A stretch of 64,000 nt of DNA, from contig JAISDO010000008.1 of the NCBI GenBank assembly GCA_031264755.1, forward strand, positions 1 to 64,000. Reading direction: 5' to 3'. This DNA comes from Clostridiales bacterium. GTDB taxonomy: Bacteria; Bacillota_A; Clostridia; Christensenellales; Pumilibacteraceae. The position numbers and the translations under genes were made by a program. Positions 15,032 to 26,248 of this stretch are shown in pieces (the stretch's first letter is position 1; each line of letters starts with the position of its first letter). The notes below the pieces were generated by a model. That model searched no databases and was not told the origin of the DNA. It saw only the letters and a program-made list of their open reading frames with translations.

Positions 15032-17728
15032 TTATATTTTTCTTTGCTCTACTCTGTTGCGTTCGTCATTGCGATATTTGTAATTATCCCAGAACTTAGT
15101 ATACTCAGCAAACAATATAGGTACAAGAGACAATGCAATCACAGTCAACCAATTGACGACTCCCAAGTTGTGAGTCAATCCCAGAAGAGTATTGAGACCA
15201 GGTATAAGTACAAGGGCTGTAAAACCCACAAAAGTACCAATTAGGCTATATACAAGTTGCCTATTGTTGCGGTATCTAGTAGTCAAAAAGCTTCTTCTAC
15301 TACGCACAGTCAGTACATGCAATATACTAGTCCAGCCAAGTATGACAAATGTCATAGTCTGACCGACAATATAGTTGTCATCATTAGGTTTGCCACCAGT
15401 CCCAATATAGTAAGCTAATATACCCACAATTGTTACTGCTATAGATTGCTGAATTATCGCTTGCATCAATCCACCGCCAAAAAAACTCTCGTTGCGATTG
15501 ATTGGCTTGCGTTTCATTATCCTTTTGTCACTACGTTCTTTGGCTAATGCTATGCCCGGTATGCCGTCACACGCTACATTGACTATCAAGAGCATTATAG
15601 GCGTCACAGGCAACCACCACTTGACGCTACCGTCGGGCAAAGTTTGTTGAAATATCAACAACCCAAACAACATTATGAAGATCTCACTCAAGTTGCATAC
15701 AATCAAGAAGTATATAGCCTTGCGTATATTGCTAAATACATTACGTCCTTCGCTTACGGCCTCTACAATTGTCCCAAATGTATCATCTACCAGTATCATA
15801 TCAGCCGCAGATTTGGCGACTTCGGTGCCGGCTATACCCATAGCAATGCCTACATCCGCAGCCTTGAGAGCGGGAGCATCATTGACACCATCCCCAGTCA
15901 TGCTCACAACAGCGCCTAGCTTTTGCCATGCTTGTACTATCCTAATCTTGTCTTCGGGGCTTACACGTGCGTATACACTGTAGTATTCTATGCTGTTGTA
16001 CAACTCTTCATCACTCAGTTTGCCCAATTGTTGCCCGGTAATCACACCTTCCTGATGGACTATTATGCCCAAGTTGCGAGCTATTGCCGTAGCTGTTGCG
16101 GCGTGGTCGCCTGTTATCATTATTGTGCGTATACCGGCATTGCGTGCTAAGGCTATTGCTACCTTAGCCTGTGGACGTGGTGGGTCAATAATACCCACAA
16201 ATCCCACAAACTCCAAGTCTCTTTCAAGCTCTGACAAGTTGAACTTGTCGGGTACGCTATCTACAACTTTGGTAGCTAGTGTAATAACTCTCAAGGCATC
16301 ATGAGCAAAATTGTCGTGCATCACTTGCCGTTTGTGTTCGGCAGCTAGATCGGATTTGTCATATGGTATACGGTCAAATGCTCCTTTGGTCAATACCAGA
16401 TACTTGCCGTCATCCCGCTGTACAACAATGGTCATCATCTTGCGAGCACTACTGAAGGGTATCTCCGCCACCCTCTTGTACCTAGCTCTCAACGACTCTA
16501 CATCTATACCTTTTTTGATAGCTAGACGCATTAGGGCACTCTCTGTAGGGTCGCCTATGATTATTTCTTTGCCCTCTTCATTGACTTGCAATGTGACATT
16601 GCTAGCCAACAAATAGTTGTGTATCAATTGCAATTGTTGAGGATTGAGATCGGAGTCATCATCTATACAGTCAAATTGATTGTGCCAAATCCTTGTCACT
16701 GACATCTTGTTTTGTGTCAATGTACCTGTCTTGTCACTACATATTACACTTACGCTACCCAATGTTTCTACCGCTTGGAGCTTGCGTATTAGTGCATTTT
16801 TGGATACCATGGACTTGATACCGTATGTGAGTGTCAATGTTACTATGACGGACAAAGTCTCGGGTACTGCTGCTACAGATAGCGTTATTGCCACAAGTGA
16901 CAAATACAAAAAATCTTGCCCTTGGACTATGCCTATAGCCAACACCACTGCTGCTGCAAGGATTGCTATAGCACAGACCGTTCTCCCTATCTTATTGAGT
17001 CTAATTTGGAGAGGGGTCTTACGTTTTTTGGTATGAGTCAGATACTTGGCTATCTTACCTATCTGAGTATTCATACCTACAGACAACACAACAGCAGTAG
17101 CATTGCCGCCTACAACAAGACAGCCACTAAATAGCAGATTCTTCTGTTCGCCTAATGGTACATCTTGTTGTTCTATTTTGATAGCGTTCTTTTTGACGGG
17201 CTCACTCTCGCCGGTTAGACTAGCCTCATCCACCAAAAAGTCATTGCAATCTATCACTCTAGCGTCGGCAGGTATAAGATCGCCAGTCTTGAGTACAATA
17301 ATATCCCCTGCCACTACCTCAGCTGTATCTATCTTGGTCTTGACTCCATCTCGTATGACATAACAATGTGGAGCATTGAGTTTGCTCAGTGCATCTAGAG
17401 CCTTTTCACTACCTTTGGTTTGGACTACAGACAATACAACGTTGATAACGATTATTGATATTATTACTATAGGACTAATATAATCACTAAAGGTATGATC
17501 CTTGATCACAGCAAAGCTAAGTATAGCAGCTATAATAAGTATAATCTCAGATATCTCCATTAATGGGTGCAATATCACCTTGAAGATGCTTTCTTTTTTT
17601 TTGTCTGCAAATTGGTTGCGACCATATTTGGCAACATTAGTTTGTATTTGAGATTGACCAAGTCCCTTAGCGGGATCAACACCAAACTCATCTAGTATTT
17701 GTGATATATCTTTGTTGTAGTCTTTCAA
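15032..17728 (-). CDS. P-type Ca2+-transporting ATPase (P2 type)
   Basis: Cation pump of 898 residues, full length for bacterial SERCA/PMCA-like enzymes that expel Ca2+. Visible are the actuator motif LTGESEPVKK, the phosphorylation site DKTGTLTQNKM, the hinge MITGDHAATA...TGDGVNDAPALK and about ten membrane helices. Putative ion ligands in M5 (NLSEIF) and M6 (IVNVACDGIPG) are kept, but M4 reads VPETLS in place of the usual PEGLP. Translation starts at a TTG with AGGAGG 6 nt upstream. It is transcribed alone, with ~230 bp separating it from the NADH oxidase gene upstream. Ca2+ specificity is inferred from family resemblance. Confidence 0.88.
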   Translation of the reverse strand: MKDYNKDISQILDEFGVDPAKGLGQSQIQTNVAKYGRNQFADKKKESIFKVILHPLMEISEIILIIAAILSFAVIKDHTFSDYISPIVIISIIVINVVLSVVQTKGSEKALDALSKLNAPHCYVIRDGVKTKIDTAEVVAGDIIVLKTGDLIPADARVIDCNDFLVDEASLTGESEPVKKNAIKIEQQDVPLGEQKNLLFSGCLVVGGNATAVVLSVGMNTQIGKIAKYLTHTKKRKTPLQIRLNKIGRTVCAIAILAAAVVLAIGIVQGQDFLYLSLVAITLSVAAVPETLSVIVTLTLTYGIKSMVSKNALIRKLQAVETLGSVSVICSDKTGTLTQNKMSVTRIWHNQFDCIDDDSDLNPQQLQLIHNYLLASNVTLQVNEEGKEIIIGDPTESALMRLAIKKGIDVESLRARYKRVAEIPFSSARKMMTIVVQRDDGKYLVLTKGAFDRIPYDKSDLAAEHKRQVMHDNFAHDALRVITLATKVVDSVPDKFNLSELERDLEFVGFVGIIDPPRPQAKVAIALARNAGIRTIMITGDHAATATAIARNLGIIVHQEGVITGQQLGKLSDEELYNSIEYYSVYARVSPEDKIRIVQAWQKLGAVVSMTGDGVNDAPALKAADVGIAMGIAGTEVAKSAADMILVDDTFGTIVEAVSEGRNVFSNIRKAIYFLIVCNLSEIFIMLFGLLIFQQTLPDGSVKWWLPVTPIMLLIVNVACDGIPGIALAKERSDKRIMKRKPINRNESFFGGGLMQAIIQQSIAVTIVGILAYYIGTGGKPNDDNYIVGQTMTFVILGWTSILHVLTVRSRRSFLTTRYRNNRQLVYSLIGTFVGFTALVLIPGLNTLLGLTHNLGVVNWLTVIALSLVPILFAEYTKFWDNYKYRNDERNRVEQRKI

Positions 17729-21401: not shown

Positions 21402-21422
21402 CATCAACTGTTGCTAGATTTT
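21393..21422. terminator. Bidirectional terminator between the AraC gene and dxs
   Basis: An 11-bp perfect stem AAAATCTAGCA / TGCTAGATTTT with an 8-nt loop, flanked by TTTT on the plus strand and by T-rich sequence within the stem on the minus strand. It overlaps the ends of both convergent genes. Confidence 0.75.
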
Positions 21423-23297
21423 GGTTTGTTTTGGCAATAGTTGATCGTTGGTGATTGGCGATTGGTTATTGGTTGATTTGACTCTTGAGATGATAGCTTG
21501 TATGGCTGATACGCTTATTCCGGATTGATGCAATGCTTGCTTGATATCCAAATTGGTTATGTGTTGATCGGAGTGCCCTATTACAACTACTTTGGGTGGA
21601 CTAATTAGTTGACTTGCATATGTTGCAATTTGTTGTCCAAACCCACCAATAATCACACCATCTTCTATAGTTATAATAGCCTTATAGTGCTTGGTTATGT
21701 GTTGCAACATAGTCGTATCCAACGGCTTGACAAATGTAGCATGCAATACATTGACCTCACGACACTGCATAGCTATATCCAATGCTCTGTTGCCAGTGAC
21801 TACTATCACAACATCCCAATATTCTCGTCTTGTCCACTCCCATCTAAAGTCTATATTGTGCTCAGTATTGTACAACTTGTCAAAACTCTTTGGATATCTA
21901 ATAGCCAATGGAGCATTGTAAGAGTGAGCAAATTTGAGCATGGCACTGAGTTGTGGACCATCTTTGGGAGACATTATTGTCATTTTGGGGATCTGATTGA
22001 GGTATGCTATATCATATACGCCTTGGTGCGTTACTCCATCTGCCCCATTGACTCCAGCTCTATCTATCAAAAAAGTTACTGGAAGATTGTTGATAGCTAC
22101 ATCATGCAATACTTGATCAAAGCCTCGTTGCAAAAATGTAGAATACACAGCAAAAAAAGGCTTGCATCCTCCCTTAGCCAATCCTGCCGCCATAGTTGTG
22201 GCATGTTGCTCAGCCATACCTACATCTATAAATCTATCTGGATAAGTTTGTGCAAACTTGCTCAAACCAGTGCCACTTGTCATACCTGCTACAATGACCA
22301 CAACGCTCCTATCTGACTTGGCAATATCTATAAGAGTATCAGACATATAGTCAGCATACAACATTGGGGACTTAGTCACATTGGTAGAGTTGCTCTCTAC
22401 CTCATATGTATTGGCATCTACAAGATTGATATTCTTGGCGGCTATGCCATGATAGCTCTCAGAATCCAATTGAGCATGCAATACTCCCTTGCCTTTTTGA
22501 GTCAGGAAGTGAATTAGTACAGGACCATCTTCTTGTTTGAGATCATTCAACAGATGTATGATGTCAGACAAATTGTGACCATCATATGGTCCAAAATACT
22601 TAATACCAAGTGATTTGATGACATTGTTGCCCAATTCTCTACTGAGTGCATACTCTGTCTTCTTGGCTAGTTTGACAATCTTGTTGCCCAATATTGGCAA
22701 GACTTCAAAACCTCTCTTGATGTTATTCTTAAATGTAGCAAAATTTTTGTTGTGGGCTAATCTTCTCAAATGGTTAGCCATAGCTCCTACATTGGGAGAT
22801 ATGGACATCTCATTGTCATTGAGTATGATTATTACTTTTTTGCGACTAGCACCCAAGTCGTTGAGTGCTTCGTATGCCATACCGCCGCCCATAGCACCAT
22901 CACCTATCAATGTTACAATATTGTGATTTTGCTGTTTGATATCTCTAGCTCTAGCCAATCCAAGAGCTAATGACAAACTTGTTGTGCCATGACCTGTAGC
23001 AAATAGATCTGTATCACTCTCTACAGGATTGGGAAATCCTGTAGGACCACTATTGGTACGCAATCCCGTAAGGTCTCTATCTGTAAGTATCTTGTGAGCA
23101 TAACATTGATGCCCTACATCTAATACTAATTTGTCTTTGACAAAGTCAAAGACATAGTGCATTGCCACTGTCAACTCTACTACGCCAAGATTAGAAGATA
23201 GATGTCCACCATATTGGTATACTTTGTCTATTATGTGCTGTCTTATATCTGTACAAAGCTCTTCCAACTCTTGTACAGATTTTGATTTTATGTTCAT
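21414..23297 (-). CDS. dxs: 1-deoxy-D-xylulose-5-phosphate synthase
   Basis: Thiamine-diphosphate enzyme of 627 residues that joins pyruvate and glyceraldehyde 3-phosphate, the first step of the MEP isoprenoid pathway. The N-terminal GGHLSSNLGVVELTVAMHYVF, the thiamine-diphosphate/Mg motif GDGAMGGGMAYEALN and the catalytic region VGMAEQHATTMAAGLA...YSTFLQRGFDQ are all clear. The C-terminus ends in a polar stretch. It has no Shine-Dalgarno site; a TATAAT lies only 4 nt before the ATG, so translation start or cotranscription with the upstream oapA is uncertain. Order on the minus strand is structured RNA, oapA, dxs; the pathway genes ispD-ispF are divergent, 1.8 kb away. Confidence 0.96.
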   Translation of the reverse strand: MNIKSKSVQELEELCTDIRQHIIDKVYQYGGHLSSNLGVVELTVAMHYVFDFVKDKLVLDVGHQCYAHKILTDRDLTGLRTNSGPTGFPNPVESDTDLFATGHGTTSLSLALGLARARDIKQQNHNIVTLIGDGAMGGGMAYEALNDLGASRKKVIIILNDNEMSISPNVGAMANHLRRLAHNKNFATFKNNIKRGFEVLPILGNKIVKLAKKTEYALSRELGNNVIKSLGIKYFGPYDGHNLSDIIHLLNDLKQEDGPVLIHFLTQKGKGVLHAQLDSESYHGIAAKNINLVDANTYEVESNSTNVTKSPMLYADYMSDTLIDIAKSDRSVVVIVAGMTSGTGLSKFAQTYPDRFIDVGMAEQHATTMAAGLAKGGCKPFFAVYSTFLQRGFDQVLHDVAINNLPVTFLIDRAGVNGADGVTHQGVYDIAYLNQIPKMTIMSPKDGPQLSAMLKFAHSYNAPLAIRYPKSFDKLYNTEHNIDFRWEWTRREYWDVVIVVTGNRALDIAMQCREVNVLHATFVKPLDTTMLQHITKHYKAIITIEDGVIIGGFGQQIATYASQLISPPKVVVIGHSDQHITNLDIKQALHQSGISVSAIQAIISRVKSTNNQSPITNDQLLPKQTKI

Positions 23298-23461: not shown

Positions 23462-24001
23462 CTAATGTTTGCCTATTCCAAACAATAGTAGTATCTTACC
23501 CGCTACCTTGATTATATTGTGACTATTGCTAATTGCATACGACTTGATTATTGCTTTGCCACACACTGTACAACTAGCAATCAACGAACTAATGACTAGA
23601 GAGCATACTAATATATTCCAGCTGGTATTTTTGGCTATCACAAGGGCAAATCCCGCTCCTACAGAGCCACTAATTATAGCTGATATGTCACCAATAATAT
23701 CACCGCATATATTAGCGACTTTGTCTTGACGTTTTATCAACCACAAACTAGATTTGGCACCTTTTACCTTGCGTGATGCCATAGCCAAGAATGGTACATT
23801 GTCACAAGCAGTAACCGCTACACCAACTAAGTCAGCCAATAGTGACAGTACCCAAAAGAAGACAAGCACAATTATAGAAATGAATATATTAGCGCCGTCC
23901 AAAGCAATCTCAGAAAAAAATCCAAAAACAAGAGACAACGCCAAAGCCAATACAAATATCTTGATTGGCCACCAATTGTATCCCTTGTTGTTGTTCTTCA
24001 T
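23462..24001 (-). CDS. oapA: Four-helix membrane protein, likely OLE-associated protein OapA
   Basis: Membrane protein of 179 residues with four predicted helices (~11-33, 38-65, 103-125, 130-150). A conserved-looking loop reads LVGVAVTACDNVPFLAMASRKVKGAKSSLWLI and a later stretch GDIIGDISAIISGSVGAG. Size, topology and these motifs fit OapA, the membrane partner that binds OLE RNA in Clostridia and Bacilli; such proteins are often labelled CorB-like. The context agrees: a ~650-nt structured RNA directly upstream and dxs directly downstream. No Shine-Dalgarno sequence is visible before the ATG, where the leader reads CTCCTTAAGCT instead. A partial hairpin (ATAGTTTTGG / CCAAACTAT) lies beyond its stop. 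Confidence 0.8.
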   Translation of the reverse strand: MKNNNKGYNWWPIKIFVLALALSLVFGFFSEIALDGANIFISIIVLVFFWVLSLLADLVGVAVTACDNVPFLAMASRKVKGAKSSLWLIKRQDKVANICGDIIGDISAIISGSVGAGFALVIAKNTSWNILVCSLVISSLIASCTVCGKAIIKSYAISNSHNIIKVAGKILLLFGIGKH

Positions 24002-24088: not shown

Positions 24089-24740
24089 TTTGTAGATGCG
24101 ACTCACAGTGCACCTACAAACTGCATTGGTGACCGAAGTATTATTAGAGGGCAATACAGTAGATAAACCCTGTGACATAAAGTTCGGTAGGATTTCCCTA
24201 TTGTGTACTTGTCGTTGCCAACCAAGCAGTTTCCTATCAAACACAACAGTTGCTAGTTGCCTATCGCAACAACCGAATCGCCTACAAAATCACACTATAA
24301 TCTCTACTGCATCTTATGCAAACAGTCTAGAAATTTTCTTTATCCGTTTTGATACATTCCTATCCATTTTTGCAATTAAAATTTCTTAGGGCAATGCCTG
24401 CAATTGTCTGCCGACAATATACAAGTGACCCCTAGTCCGCAATAATCACTCATGGCAGGCTACACTGCACACAACGCAATCTACAATTAAATGAAAAAGC
24501 AGATCCCATCATATAGCAGGTGTTCATAGCACTTGTTGGAATACAAATGCTAGCCTCCGCAAAAAATGGAACAGTTGTCGCATGCCGTTGCGGCTGCCCA
24601 TAATTCTATACTCTCAGTACCAGCCCTTGTTTGGGCAACAAAAGCCAAATACCAAAAACTTCATCGATATGCCCTTTGACGCACTTTTAACCACGCCCTC
24701 AAAACGCATCAACCCGACTAGAATACTGCACCCTCTAACC
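24089..24740 (-). ncRNA. ole: Candidate OLE RNA (ornate, large, extremophilic)
   Basis: An ~650-nt geneless stretch of more balanced base composition than its surroundings, read from a consensus promoter (24748-24777) towards oapA. It has many short helices, for example TTGATGCG / TGCGTCAA near the 5' end, GCCGcaaCGGC, GTTGcgatagGCAAC, and a final 11-bp stem TTTGTAGGTGC / GCATCTACAAA (24089-24120). No reading frame with coding character covers it. OLE RNAs are about 600-650 nt long, bind OapA at the membrane and usually lie upstream of oapA near isoprenoid genes, exactly the arrangement here. The 3' end is uncertain (24040-24100). Assignment rests on length, structure and context; covariance-model matching was not possible. 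Confidence 0.8.
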
Positions 24741-24747
24741 AAATTGT

Positions 24748-24777
24748 ATTATAAACCATAATTGGCAATTTTGTCAA
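24748..24777 (-). promoter_or_regulatory. Strong promoter of the candidate OLE RNA
   Basis: TTGACA (24772-24777) and TATAAT (24748-24753), both perfect consensus, 18 bp apart, on the minus strand. Transcription would begin near 24740, with GGTTAGAGGG as the first bases. Confidence 0.85.
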
Positions 24778-24828: not shown

Positions 24829-25113
24829 ATGAGACTTGACAAATTTCTCAAAGTGTCTAGGATACTCAAGCGTCGCACTGTAGCAACAGAGGCGTGTCAA
24901 TCGGACAAAGTACGTGTCAATGGACACATATCCAAACCGTCCAAACAACTAGCTGTCGGTGATATACTTGAGATATCATTTGGTCAAAACACCATCAAAC
25001 TAGAGATACTCAATCTCAAAGATAGTACACGCAAAGCAGACGCTGCTGAAATGTACAAGATATTGGCAACTACACCTACTATTCCAAAAGATGAATCAAT
25101 CGACAACATATAG
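24829..25113 (+). CDS. rqcP: S4-domain RNA-binding protein RqcP (YabO-like)
   Basis: Small protein of 94 residues that is nearly all S4 domain, beginning MRLDKFLKVSRILKRRTVA and containing DKVRVNGHISKPSKQLAVGDILEI. This closely follows RqcP/YabO of Bacillus, which binds 50S-peptidyl-tRNA complexes and helps RqcH add alanine tails to stalled nascent chains. The tail KDSTRKADAAEMYKIL is also typical. It has no Shine-Dalgarno sequence, and the -10 box lies within 7-12 nt of the ATG, so translation is probably leaderless. Its end overlaps ispDF by 23 nt, so the two are cotranscribed. Confidence 0.9.
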   Translation: MRLDKFLKVSRILKRRTVATEACQSDKVRVNGHISKPSKQLAVGDILEISFGQNTIKLEILNLKDSTRKADAAEMYKILATTPTIPKDESIDNI

Positions 25114-26248
25114 CAATACTACTGCAATACTACTAGCTGCGGGCTGTGGTACAAGAGCACACTTAGGGTACAACAAAATACTGTATAATTGTGGAGATTA
25201 TACAGTATTAGAGCGAGCATATTTTGCATTGAGGCAAGTGATACCCAATATAGTAGTTGTAGTATCTAAAGAGGATCAAGCACACATACAAAAGTTGCTA
25301 AAACCATACATGCCGGTCGTAGTTGTTGGTGGTTCTACTCGTTATCAATCTGTCAAATGTGGGCTTGATGCTATTGTTAGCAATCGTATATTGTGTGACA
25401 TTGTCCTAATACATGATGCTGCTAGATGCAATGTAGACAGTGATACCATACGAGCTAGTATAGAGAGTGCAACCAAATACGGCAGTGGCATCGCATGCAT
25501 ACAAGCTACTGATAGCATAAAAATAGTAAAAGACAACACAATTGTAGACAACTTGCAACGCAACACTACACACTTGGCACAAACCCCTCAGAGTTTTGGG
25601 TTTAGGGATATATATTGTGCCTATCACCAATCTAGTCACGACAACTATACTGATGATGCTACAGTTTATATGGACTATGGTCTAACAGCCTATGTCAGTC
25701 AGGGCAATCCATGCAATACCAAACTCACCTACTCCAATGACTTTGGGCAACTTGTGTGTCACAATCTCAAAATAGGACATGGATACGACGTGCATAGACT
25801 AGCTGAGGGATACAAGTTGATATTGGGGGGATTGGTCATACCATACAGTTTGGGACTTGTAGGGCATAGTGACGCCGACGTGTTGACACACGCTATCATG
25901 GACGCACTGCTTAGTGCTGCTGGGCTGCCTGATATTGGCGTGCTCTTCCCTGACACTGACAGTCAATATAAAGGTGCCAATAGTATCAATTTATTGAGAC
26001 ATGTACACAACTTGATAGTAGACAAGAATTGCGAGATAGTCAATATATCAGCCGTAGTCATGGCAGAACAACCAAAACTAGCCACACACATCTCCAATAT
26101 AGAAGAGAGATTGGCTACTGCTCTTGGCATACCACAATCCAATATCAAAATTAGTGCAACAACTACCGAGAACTTGGGCGTAATTGCTAACAACAATGGC
26201 ATTGCATCTACTGCCATGTGCCTAATAAAATATAATAATAAAGTATGA
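25091..26248 (+). CDS. ispDF: Bifunctional IspD-IspF (MEP pathway)
   Basis: Fusion of 385 residues. Residues ~1-225 are IspD (CDP-methylerythritol synthase), with LLAAGCGTRAHLGYNK and IHDAARCNVD. Residues ~228-385 are IspF (MEcPP synthase), with GHGYDVHRL, HSDADVLTHAIMDALLSAAGLPDIG and TTTENLG. The two enzymes catalyse the third and fifth steps of the MEP pathway. IspDF fusions are well known in alpha- and epsilon-Proteobacteria and occur sporadically in Bacillota. The gene starts inside rqcP and ends in an ATGA overlap with tyrS, so it is part of a tight three-gene operon. With dxs nearby, three MEP activities flank the candidate OLE RNA. Confidence 0.95.
   Translation: MNQSTTYSNTTAILLAAGCGTRAHLGYNKILYNCGDYTVLERAYFALRQVIPNIVVVVSKEDQAHIQKLLKPYMPVVVVGGSTRYQSVKCGLDAIVSNRILCDIVLIHDAARCNVDSDTIRASIESATKYGSGIACIQATDSIKIVKDNTIVDNLQRNTTHLAQTPQSFGFRDIYCAYHQSSHDNYTDDATVYMDYGLTAYVSQGNPCNTKLTYSNDFGQLVCHNLKIGHGYDVHRLAEGYKLILGGLVIPYSLGLVGHSDADVLTHAIMDALLSAAGLPDIGVLFPDTDSQYKGANSINLLRHVHNLIVDKNCEIVNISAVVMAEQPKLATHISNIEERLATALGIPQSNIKISATTTENLGVIANNNGIASTAMCLIKYNNKV

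What the first reader, a model, noticed from the sequence alone, without database searches (positions are those of the whole stretch)
24089..24740. Candidate OLE RNA between a consensus promoter and oapA-dxs
Seen: ~650 nt without a coding frame, richer in G+C than its flanks, full of local helices, read from a perfect TTGACA-18-TATAAT. Next to it is a 179-residue, four-helix protein with the OapA-type loop, then dxs. Known: OLE RNAs are ~600-650 nt, bind OapA at the membrane and lie near isoprenoid genes. Inference: this is an OLE ribonucleoprotein locus, possibly in a lineage where it has not been described.
Basis: partly seen in the sequence, partly recalled or inferred. Interest (0 to 1): 0.9.

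Follow-up and report, generated by a model that had tools for sequence, protein, structure and literature searches.

The report
OLE RNA gene beside oapA-dxs
This stretch encodes a genuine member of the OLE class of large bacterial RNAs, next to the gene for its membrane partner protein, in a bacterium whose closest known relative comes from a termite gut; the RNA class is already known, but this branch has an unusual form of it.

Summary
Rfam's OLE model (RF01071) matches 24132-24750, minus strand, over its whole length: 344.1 bits, E 1.9e-97. A perfect TTGACA-18-TATAAT promoter lies just upstream. The 179-aa protein downstream is an OapA relative with the DxxxD motif; OLE lies upstream of oapA in 75 of 80 related loci. 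dxs follows. Base pairing is kept by compensatory changes across 34 OLE RNAs, so a relic is unlikely.

OLE RNAs are known from 2,822 Bacillota genomes (PMC11332333): this is a new member of a known kind. Three things go further. (1) The window and three relatives carry 9-15 changes at 163 near-invariant positions; 45 other OLEs have a median of 2, maximum 13. (2) P7 is one hairpin, P8 is lengthened (mostly in the relatives), and the P9 kissing loop lacks its usual palindrome. (3) The clade (OLE present, no MpfA found) groups with relatives that lack OLE and carry the Mg exporter MpfA. Function is inferred; the window's own genome is not held.

The parts
24748..24777 (-). promoter TTGACA-18 nt-TATAAT of the OLE gene
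   Evidence: 12 of 12 consensus positions. Clade relatives L001, L101 and L102 have 12, 11 and 11 of 12 just upstream of OLE. A start of transcription about 24741 is inferred.
24132..24750 (-). OLE RNA gene (RF01071)
   Evidence: 344.1 bits, E 1.9e-97, full model; 136 of 145 model pairs with both bases in the window are standard pairs
24730..24736 (-). P1 outer helix, 5' strand
   Evidence: pairs with 24146-24152; helix 93.5% paired in 34 sequences, 6 of 7 pairs changed on both sides
24146..24152 (-). P1 outer helix, 3' strand
   Evidence: as above
24527..24552 (-). P7 reduced to a single 10-bp hairpin, without the GUG/UAC inner element of most OLEs (P7 label inferred from the order of stems)
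   Evidence: fold (z -2.0); alignment
24465..24519 (-). P8 stem, somewhat lengthened (label inferred from order)
   Evidence: fold z -4.3; inner length 31 nt against a median of 23 and a maximum of 40 in 49 others; three relatives 42-93
24407..24414 (-). P9 apical loop UCGGCAGA, the dimer kissing loop in a solved OLE; here not a Watson-Crick palindrome
   Evidence: role of L9.3 from PMC12286853
24207..24270 (-). P12.2/P13-type hairpins with two GGCAAC loops, the OapB-binding region in other OLEs (labels inferred)
   Evidence: alignment to the Rfam consensus and to relatives
24089..24120 (-). hairpin in the spacer between OLE and oapA, not terminator-like
   Evidence: fold; no terminator-like site here
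23462..24001 (-). oapA, 179 aa, CNNM-like membrane protein with D101-x3-D105
21414..23297 (-). dxs (1-deoxy-D-xylulose-5-phosphate synthase)
   Evidence: TIGR00204 E 2.3e-182
24829..25113 (+). S4-domain RNA-binding protein, divergent neighbour
   Evidence: PF01479 E 5.9e-10
25091..26248 (+). ispDF fusion, second isoprenoid gene next to the locus
   Evidence: PF01128 and PF02542

Best explanation
24132-24750 (-) is an ole gene. Its own promoter makes a ~600-nt OLE RNA, probably as the first part of an ole-oapA-dxs transcript from which OLE is processed. OapA anchors the RNA at the membrane. The complex, with OapB, OapC and bS21, tunes divalent-metal and stress homeostasis, doing work that MpfA-type Mg exporters do in OLE-less relatives. 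Shown here: identity, conserved structure, promoter match, synteny, partner genes in relatives, and the OLE/MpfA exclusion. Inferred: transcription, processing, membrane location and function.
For: RF01071 at E 1.9e-97. 34-sequence test: 85.8% of cells paired against 39.6-45.8% in slid controls, covariation score 0.496 against 0.106-0.135. Promoter kept in the clade. OLE upstream of oapA on one strand in 75 of 80 loci, and in 44 of the 49 that were not in the search model (model rows). dxs directly after oapA in 15 of 80. The OapA model's six best PDB matches are all CNNM/CorC proteins, best E 0.012; 27 of 29 aligned OapA sequences match Pfam CNNM at E <= 1. YbxF/OapC-type protein beside rpsL in G001, G007 and G009. 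OapB-like protein in 11 of 11 genomes. bS21 in 7 of 7. Full-length MpfA in 4 of 19 OLE+ and 40 of 42 OLE- genomes, Fisher p 6e-9.
Against: No RNA-seq, Northern or binding data. The window's genome is not held, so OapB, OapC, bS21 and absence of MpfA were checked only in relatives, which are drafts. The OapB-like protein is also in OLE-negative genomes (G008, G011), and OLE+ G006 shows no L7Ae protein. The window's OapA scores under Pfam CNNM's cut-off (10.6 of 28.4 bits), and no Foldseek match reaches E 0.001. Three of 80 oapA loci have room upstream but no OLE. The genomes in the Fisher test are not independent.
Confidence: 0.9

Rival explanations
1. The OLE stretch acts only in cis, as a structured 5' leader that controls oapA-dxs, and no free OLE RNA accumulates.
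For: One strong promoter, and no terminator-like site between OLE and oapA. In L001 the oapA start lies about 20 nt after the outer helix.
Against: The outer helix P1 closes the whole RNA and covaries. In H. halodurans OLE is detected as a ~630-nt RNA (PMC9723947, passage). In L035 and L074 the OLE hit lies 4.2 and 6.6 kb from oapA.
Confidence: 0.07
2. A decaying OLE copy, no longer functional, which would explain the changes at conserved positions.
For: 11 changes at 163 near-invariant columns, P7 shortened, palindrome of the P9 loop lost.
Against: Several changes are shared with relatives, and one is compensated: the U-A pair at the base of P9 is A-U in all four clade members. oapA is intact, and 58-63% identical in two relatives. 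The promoter is perfect.
Confidence: 0.03
3. A different, unrelated large RNA that only resembles OLE.
For: None found.
Against: Full-length covariance match and an OapA-type gene next door.
Confidence: 0.005

Closest known systems
Full-length OLE RNA (RF01071; H. halodurans, C. acetobutylicum)
   Same: Whole model 1-616 matched; conserved blocks, P1, the A-rich P4 loop, the P5.1 and P6.1 loops and OapB-type hairpins are present (stem labels mapped by me), with oapA downstream.
   Different: 11 changes at 163 near-invariant sites; simple P7 and longer P8; UCGGCAGA in place of a palindromic P9 loop; a CUxAGUGG-type motif, found by pattern in 76 of 82 OLEs, is in none of the four clade members.
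OLE variants 1 (TANB77) and 2 (RF39) of PMC11332333
   Same: P7 is shortened, as in variant 1.
   Different: P8 is not short and P9 has usual length, and the OapB-type hairpins are kept. Variant 2 lacks P7 and P8 altogether.
OapA
   Same: DxxxD motif, four long helices, CNNM-like fold, gene right after OLE.
   Different: Weak Pfam CNNM score (10.6 bits); no PDB match by sequence profile.
MpfA/CorC (CNNM-CBS-CorC) Mg exporters
   Same: Same CNNM-type membrane fold by Foldseek.
   Different: The 179-aa window protein has no CBS or CorC domain. Full-length MpfA was not found in G001, G007 or G009.

Membership tests
OLE RNA (RF01071) | Covariance-model match above the gathering score of 50 bits | tested here: met
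   344.1 bits
OLE RNA (RF01071) | ~600 nt with ornate, covarying secondary structure | tested here: met
   619 nt; 152 pairs tested, covariation above both controls
OLE RNA (RF01071) | oapA next to the RNA gene | tested here: met
   oapA 130 nt downstream
OLE RNA (RF01071) | Symmetric (palindromic) kissing loop at the tip of P9 (common, not defining: P9 is much shorter in L101, L040, L071 and L076) | tested here: not met
   UCGGCAGA; the same loop in 5 of 82 OLEs
OLE RNA (RF01071) | Accumulates as a stable membrane-bound RNA | not testable with these tools
   no expression data
OapA | DxxxD motif absent from CNNM domains | tested here: met
   D101 and D105 invariant in 29 of 29 aligned; motif named in PMC11332333
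OapA | Four membrane helices, CNNM-like fold | tested here: met
   four long helices, pLDDT 79.9; CNNM/CorC are the six best folds, E 0.012 or weaker. Membrane insertion itself was not predicted
OapA | Sequence match to the experimentally studied H. halodurans OapA | not tested
   that sequence was not in hand
OapA | Binds OLE RNA, two per RNA | not testable with these tools
   needs a binding assay
OLE variant 1 | Short P7, P8 and P9, often no OapB site | tested here: not met
   only P7 short
OLE variant 2 | P7 and P8 absent | tested here: not met
   both present, P7 reduced

The most novel reading that the evidence does not exclude
This clade carries a third structural form of OLE RNA, besides the two variants in print. 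Its RNA has rebuilt P7/P8, a P9 tip that can pair with its twin only through G.A mismatches or folds as a plain GGCA tetraloop, and altered conserved segments in domain 2. The form sits in a lineage where OLE-OapA and MpfA have been exchanged within one group of relatives.
Probability: 0.35. Interest if true: 0.55.

Novelty: new member of a known kind. Interest (0 to 1): 0.4.

Why it matters
OLE is one of the largest structured bacterial RNAs without a known biochemical function. A clade with OLE and without detected MpfA, among relatives with MpfA and without OLE, is a natural replicate of the proposed functional exchange between the two. Its divergent RNA shows which near-invariant nucleotides and which dimer contact can change while oapA and the promoter stay. 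That narrows what to mutate in the model species.

Tried and rejected
Plasmid collection: no match to the OLE DNA. PHROGs, NCBIfam and Pfam do not name the OapA protein (Pfam CNNM only 10.6 bits). PDB by sequence profile: nothing. I first took the J5/6 change AGUUAAG to AGUAUAG for a change in the OapC kink-turn. The cryo-EM paper places that kink-turn in J4a/5 with J6/7, not J5/6, so I make no such claim; AGUAUAG also occurs in L019. The first arm-length parse misread several loci (P7 = 0). The P8 figures come from a second parse that covered only 53 of 82 OLEs. The P7/P8 labels are mine, from the order of stems.

The idea that OLE and OapA never occur apart was tested. L004, L148 and L149 hold oapA without any Rfam hit at E 0.01, and L004, L025 and L031 have none by nhmmer. 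G012 was counted as OLE-negative, but its oapA begins at base 103 of a contig, so its OLE would lie off the contig. The nhmmer model was built from 49 OLEs, among them those of 31 of the 80 loci, which match by construction; of the other 49 loci, 44 have a hit.

Full report
WHAT IS THERE. cmscan of the whole window finds RF01071 (OLE) at 24132-24750 on the minus strand, 344.1 bits, E 1.9e-97, model positions 1-616; the only other hits are two tRNAs. Of 158 model pairs, 145 have both bases in the window and 136 of these are standard pairs. An outer helix, P1 (24736-24730 with 24152-24146), is not among the pairs of the Rfam model and was added by me.

IS IT MORE THAN CHANCE. On a plain MAFFT alignment of 34 OLE RNAs the structure has 85.8% standard cells, against 39.6-45.8% when partners are slid by 1-3 columns. 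The covariation score is 0.496 against 0.106-0.135 slid and 0.215 shuffled; 119 of 152 pairs show changes on both sides. P1 is 93.5% paired with 6 of 7 pairs changed on both sides. Two short helices in the P9 arm pair poorly (helices 12 and 13, 40% and 52%). The structure came from fitting the Rfam model to the window, so the percentage leans towards it.

PROMOTER AND TRANSCRIPT. TTGACA-18-TATAAT ends at 24748, which puts the start (inferred) a few bases before P1. Of 49 OLE loci scanned, 26 have a 10-of-12 or better promoter just upstream. The mean best score is 9.61 against 7.62 (sd 0.17) for shuffled letters; the window and L001 score 12, L101 and L102 11 (L081-L085 and L103 left out as duplicates or truncated). 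No terminator-like site lies between OLE and oapA on this strand. In H. halodurans OLE has its own promoter inside a large operon and is detected as a ~630-nt RNA (PMC9723947, passage seen).

THE PROTEIN. The 179-aa ORF has 85 hits at E <= 0.001, the window's own entry included. In 29 aligned (the window and 28 others), D101 and D105 (DIIGD) are invariant. DxxxD is named as a distinctive feature of OapA that CNNM domains lack (PMC11332333, section 4). AlphaFold2 gives four long helices, pLDDT 79.9. The six best PDB folds are all CNNM/CorC proteins, best E 0.012, none under 0.001. Of the best 80 oapA loci kept from 537 in reference genomes, 75 have OLE upstream on the same strand; 2 have too little DNA and 3 have none. 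The search model contained the OLEs of 31 of the 80; of the other 49, 44 have a hit. dxs follows oapA in 15 of 80; of the other 65, 9 have short contigs.

LINEAGE. No genome is held for the window. The nearest locus is L001 (OapA 63%, isolate Nc150Mbin1). Nc150 is the code for the termite Nasutitermes corniger in PMC7024585 (table passage). G007 is next (OapA 58%, Dxs 59%). G009 is more distant (OapA 37%; OLE 58%). That the window itself is from a termite gut is a guess.

A DIVERGENT OLE CLADE. Among 163 columns that are at least 95% conserved in 45 other OLEs, the window differs at 11, L085 (the OLE of L001) at 11, L102 at 9 and L101 at 15. Leave-one-out values for the 45 have a median of 2; two reach the clade's range, L042 with 13 and L092 with 10. 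Several changes are shared. One is a compensated pair: U-A to A-U at the base of P9 in all four (columns 408/511). A CUxAGUGG-type motif is found by pattern, anywhere in the RNA, in 76 of 82 OLEs and in none of the four. P7 is one clean 10-bp hairpin in the window. The P8 inner length is 31 nt in the window and 42-93 in three relatives, against a median of 23, a 90th percentile of 30 and a maximum of 40 in 49 others; by itself the window would be unremarkable here. One paper says that P7 and P8 make no dimer contact (PMC12265935, passage), which fits their freedom to change; another lists an L7 contact in bridge B2 (PMC12286853, section 5). I cannot settle this from text alone.

THE P9 KISSING LOOP. 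The solved C. acetobutylicum OLE dimer has a symmetric kissing loop at L9.3, whose palindrome switches GGCC to GAUC or AGCU in evolution (PMC12286853, passages). In 5 of 82 OLEs (window, L001, L102, L017, L028) this loop is UCGGCAGA, not a Watson-Crick palindrome. It could pair with itself only with two G.A mismatches, or close to a GGCA tetraloop as the fold has it. L101's P9 is about half as long and lacks that tip. So this dimer bridge is probably weak or lost here (inference).

PARTNERS. G001, G007 and G009 have a YbxF/OapC-type L7Ae protein beside rpsL and rpsG (gene names other than L7Ae read from the translations); the best PDB matches of G001's protein are YbxF. Among 7 genomes, 6 have an L7Ae hit; OLE+ G006 has none. 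An OapB-like KOW protein is in 11 of 11 genomes searched, OLE-negative G008 and G011 included. In G001 and G009 it precedes an infA-like ORF (read from translations), and G001's best PDB match is OapB, E 0.0028. bS21 is in 7 of 7. None could be checked in the window's own genome.

OLE AND MpfA. Over G001 and 60 relatives, OLE is found in 19 of 61 (stricter filters). Full-length MpfA (CNNM frame of 360 aa or more) is in 4 of the 19 OLE+ (G044, G057, G062, G063) and 40 of the 42 OLE- (not G012, G034) (Fisher p 6e-9, which ignores kinship). In a quick Dxs tree of 45 rows the window, G001 and G007 form a clade (100*). G012 joins it at 92, and the four fall in a 31-row group (99*) whose other 27 rows are OLE- and MpfA+. 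That the clade lies inside this group, and not beside it, rests on a branch at 89, under the star limit. This repeats within one group the anticorrelation that PMC11332333 reports across Bacillota. The tree cannot tell loss from gain. G009 is not in it, because its dxs is partial. G047 and G049 keep oapA next to dxs, have MpfA and show no OLE.

PAPERS. PMC11332333: outline, abstract and section 4 whole. PMC12265935: abstract, section 3 part 1, section 6, passages. PMC12286853: section 5 and passages. PMC9723947: abstract, section 5 part 1, passage. PMC7024585: passages. PMC12054373: listing only.

VERDICT. An OLE ribonucleoprotein locus, correctly spotted. It is a new member of a known kind with a divergent RNA. 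The function in this organism is carried over from H. halodurans and not shown.

Noticed in passing
L148:2636-3241 and L149:2924-3577 (genomes G047, G049): OapA-like genes with the DVIGD motif between ispA-like and dxs genes (names read from translations), with no OLE hit, in genomes that also have MpfA. OapA may outlive OLE.
   Followed up: partly
L004:5545-6153: OapA-like gene after a tatD-like ORF with no OLE nearby or in its 1.1-Mb draft genome G004.
   Followed up: partly
L035:5219-5818 and L074:2838-3430: The OLE hit lies 4.2 and 6.6 kb upstream of oapA instead of next to it.
   Followed up: no
L017, L028: Two OLEs outside the clade share the UCGGCAGA P9 loop.
   Followed up: no
window 15032-17728: Long ORF with P-type ATPase features (read from the translation, not searched): a possible cation pump in a genome that may lack MpfA.
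   Followed up: no
window 24829-26248: S4-domain gene and a fused ispDF diverge from the OLE promoter, so isoprenoid genes lie on both sides.
   Followed up: no
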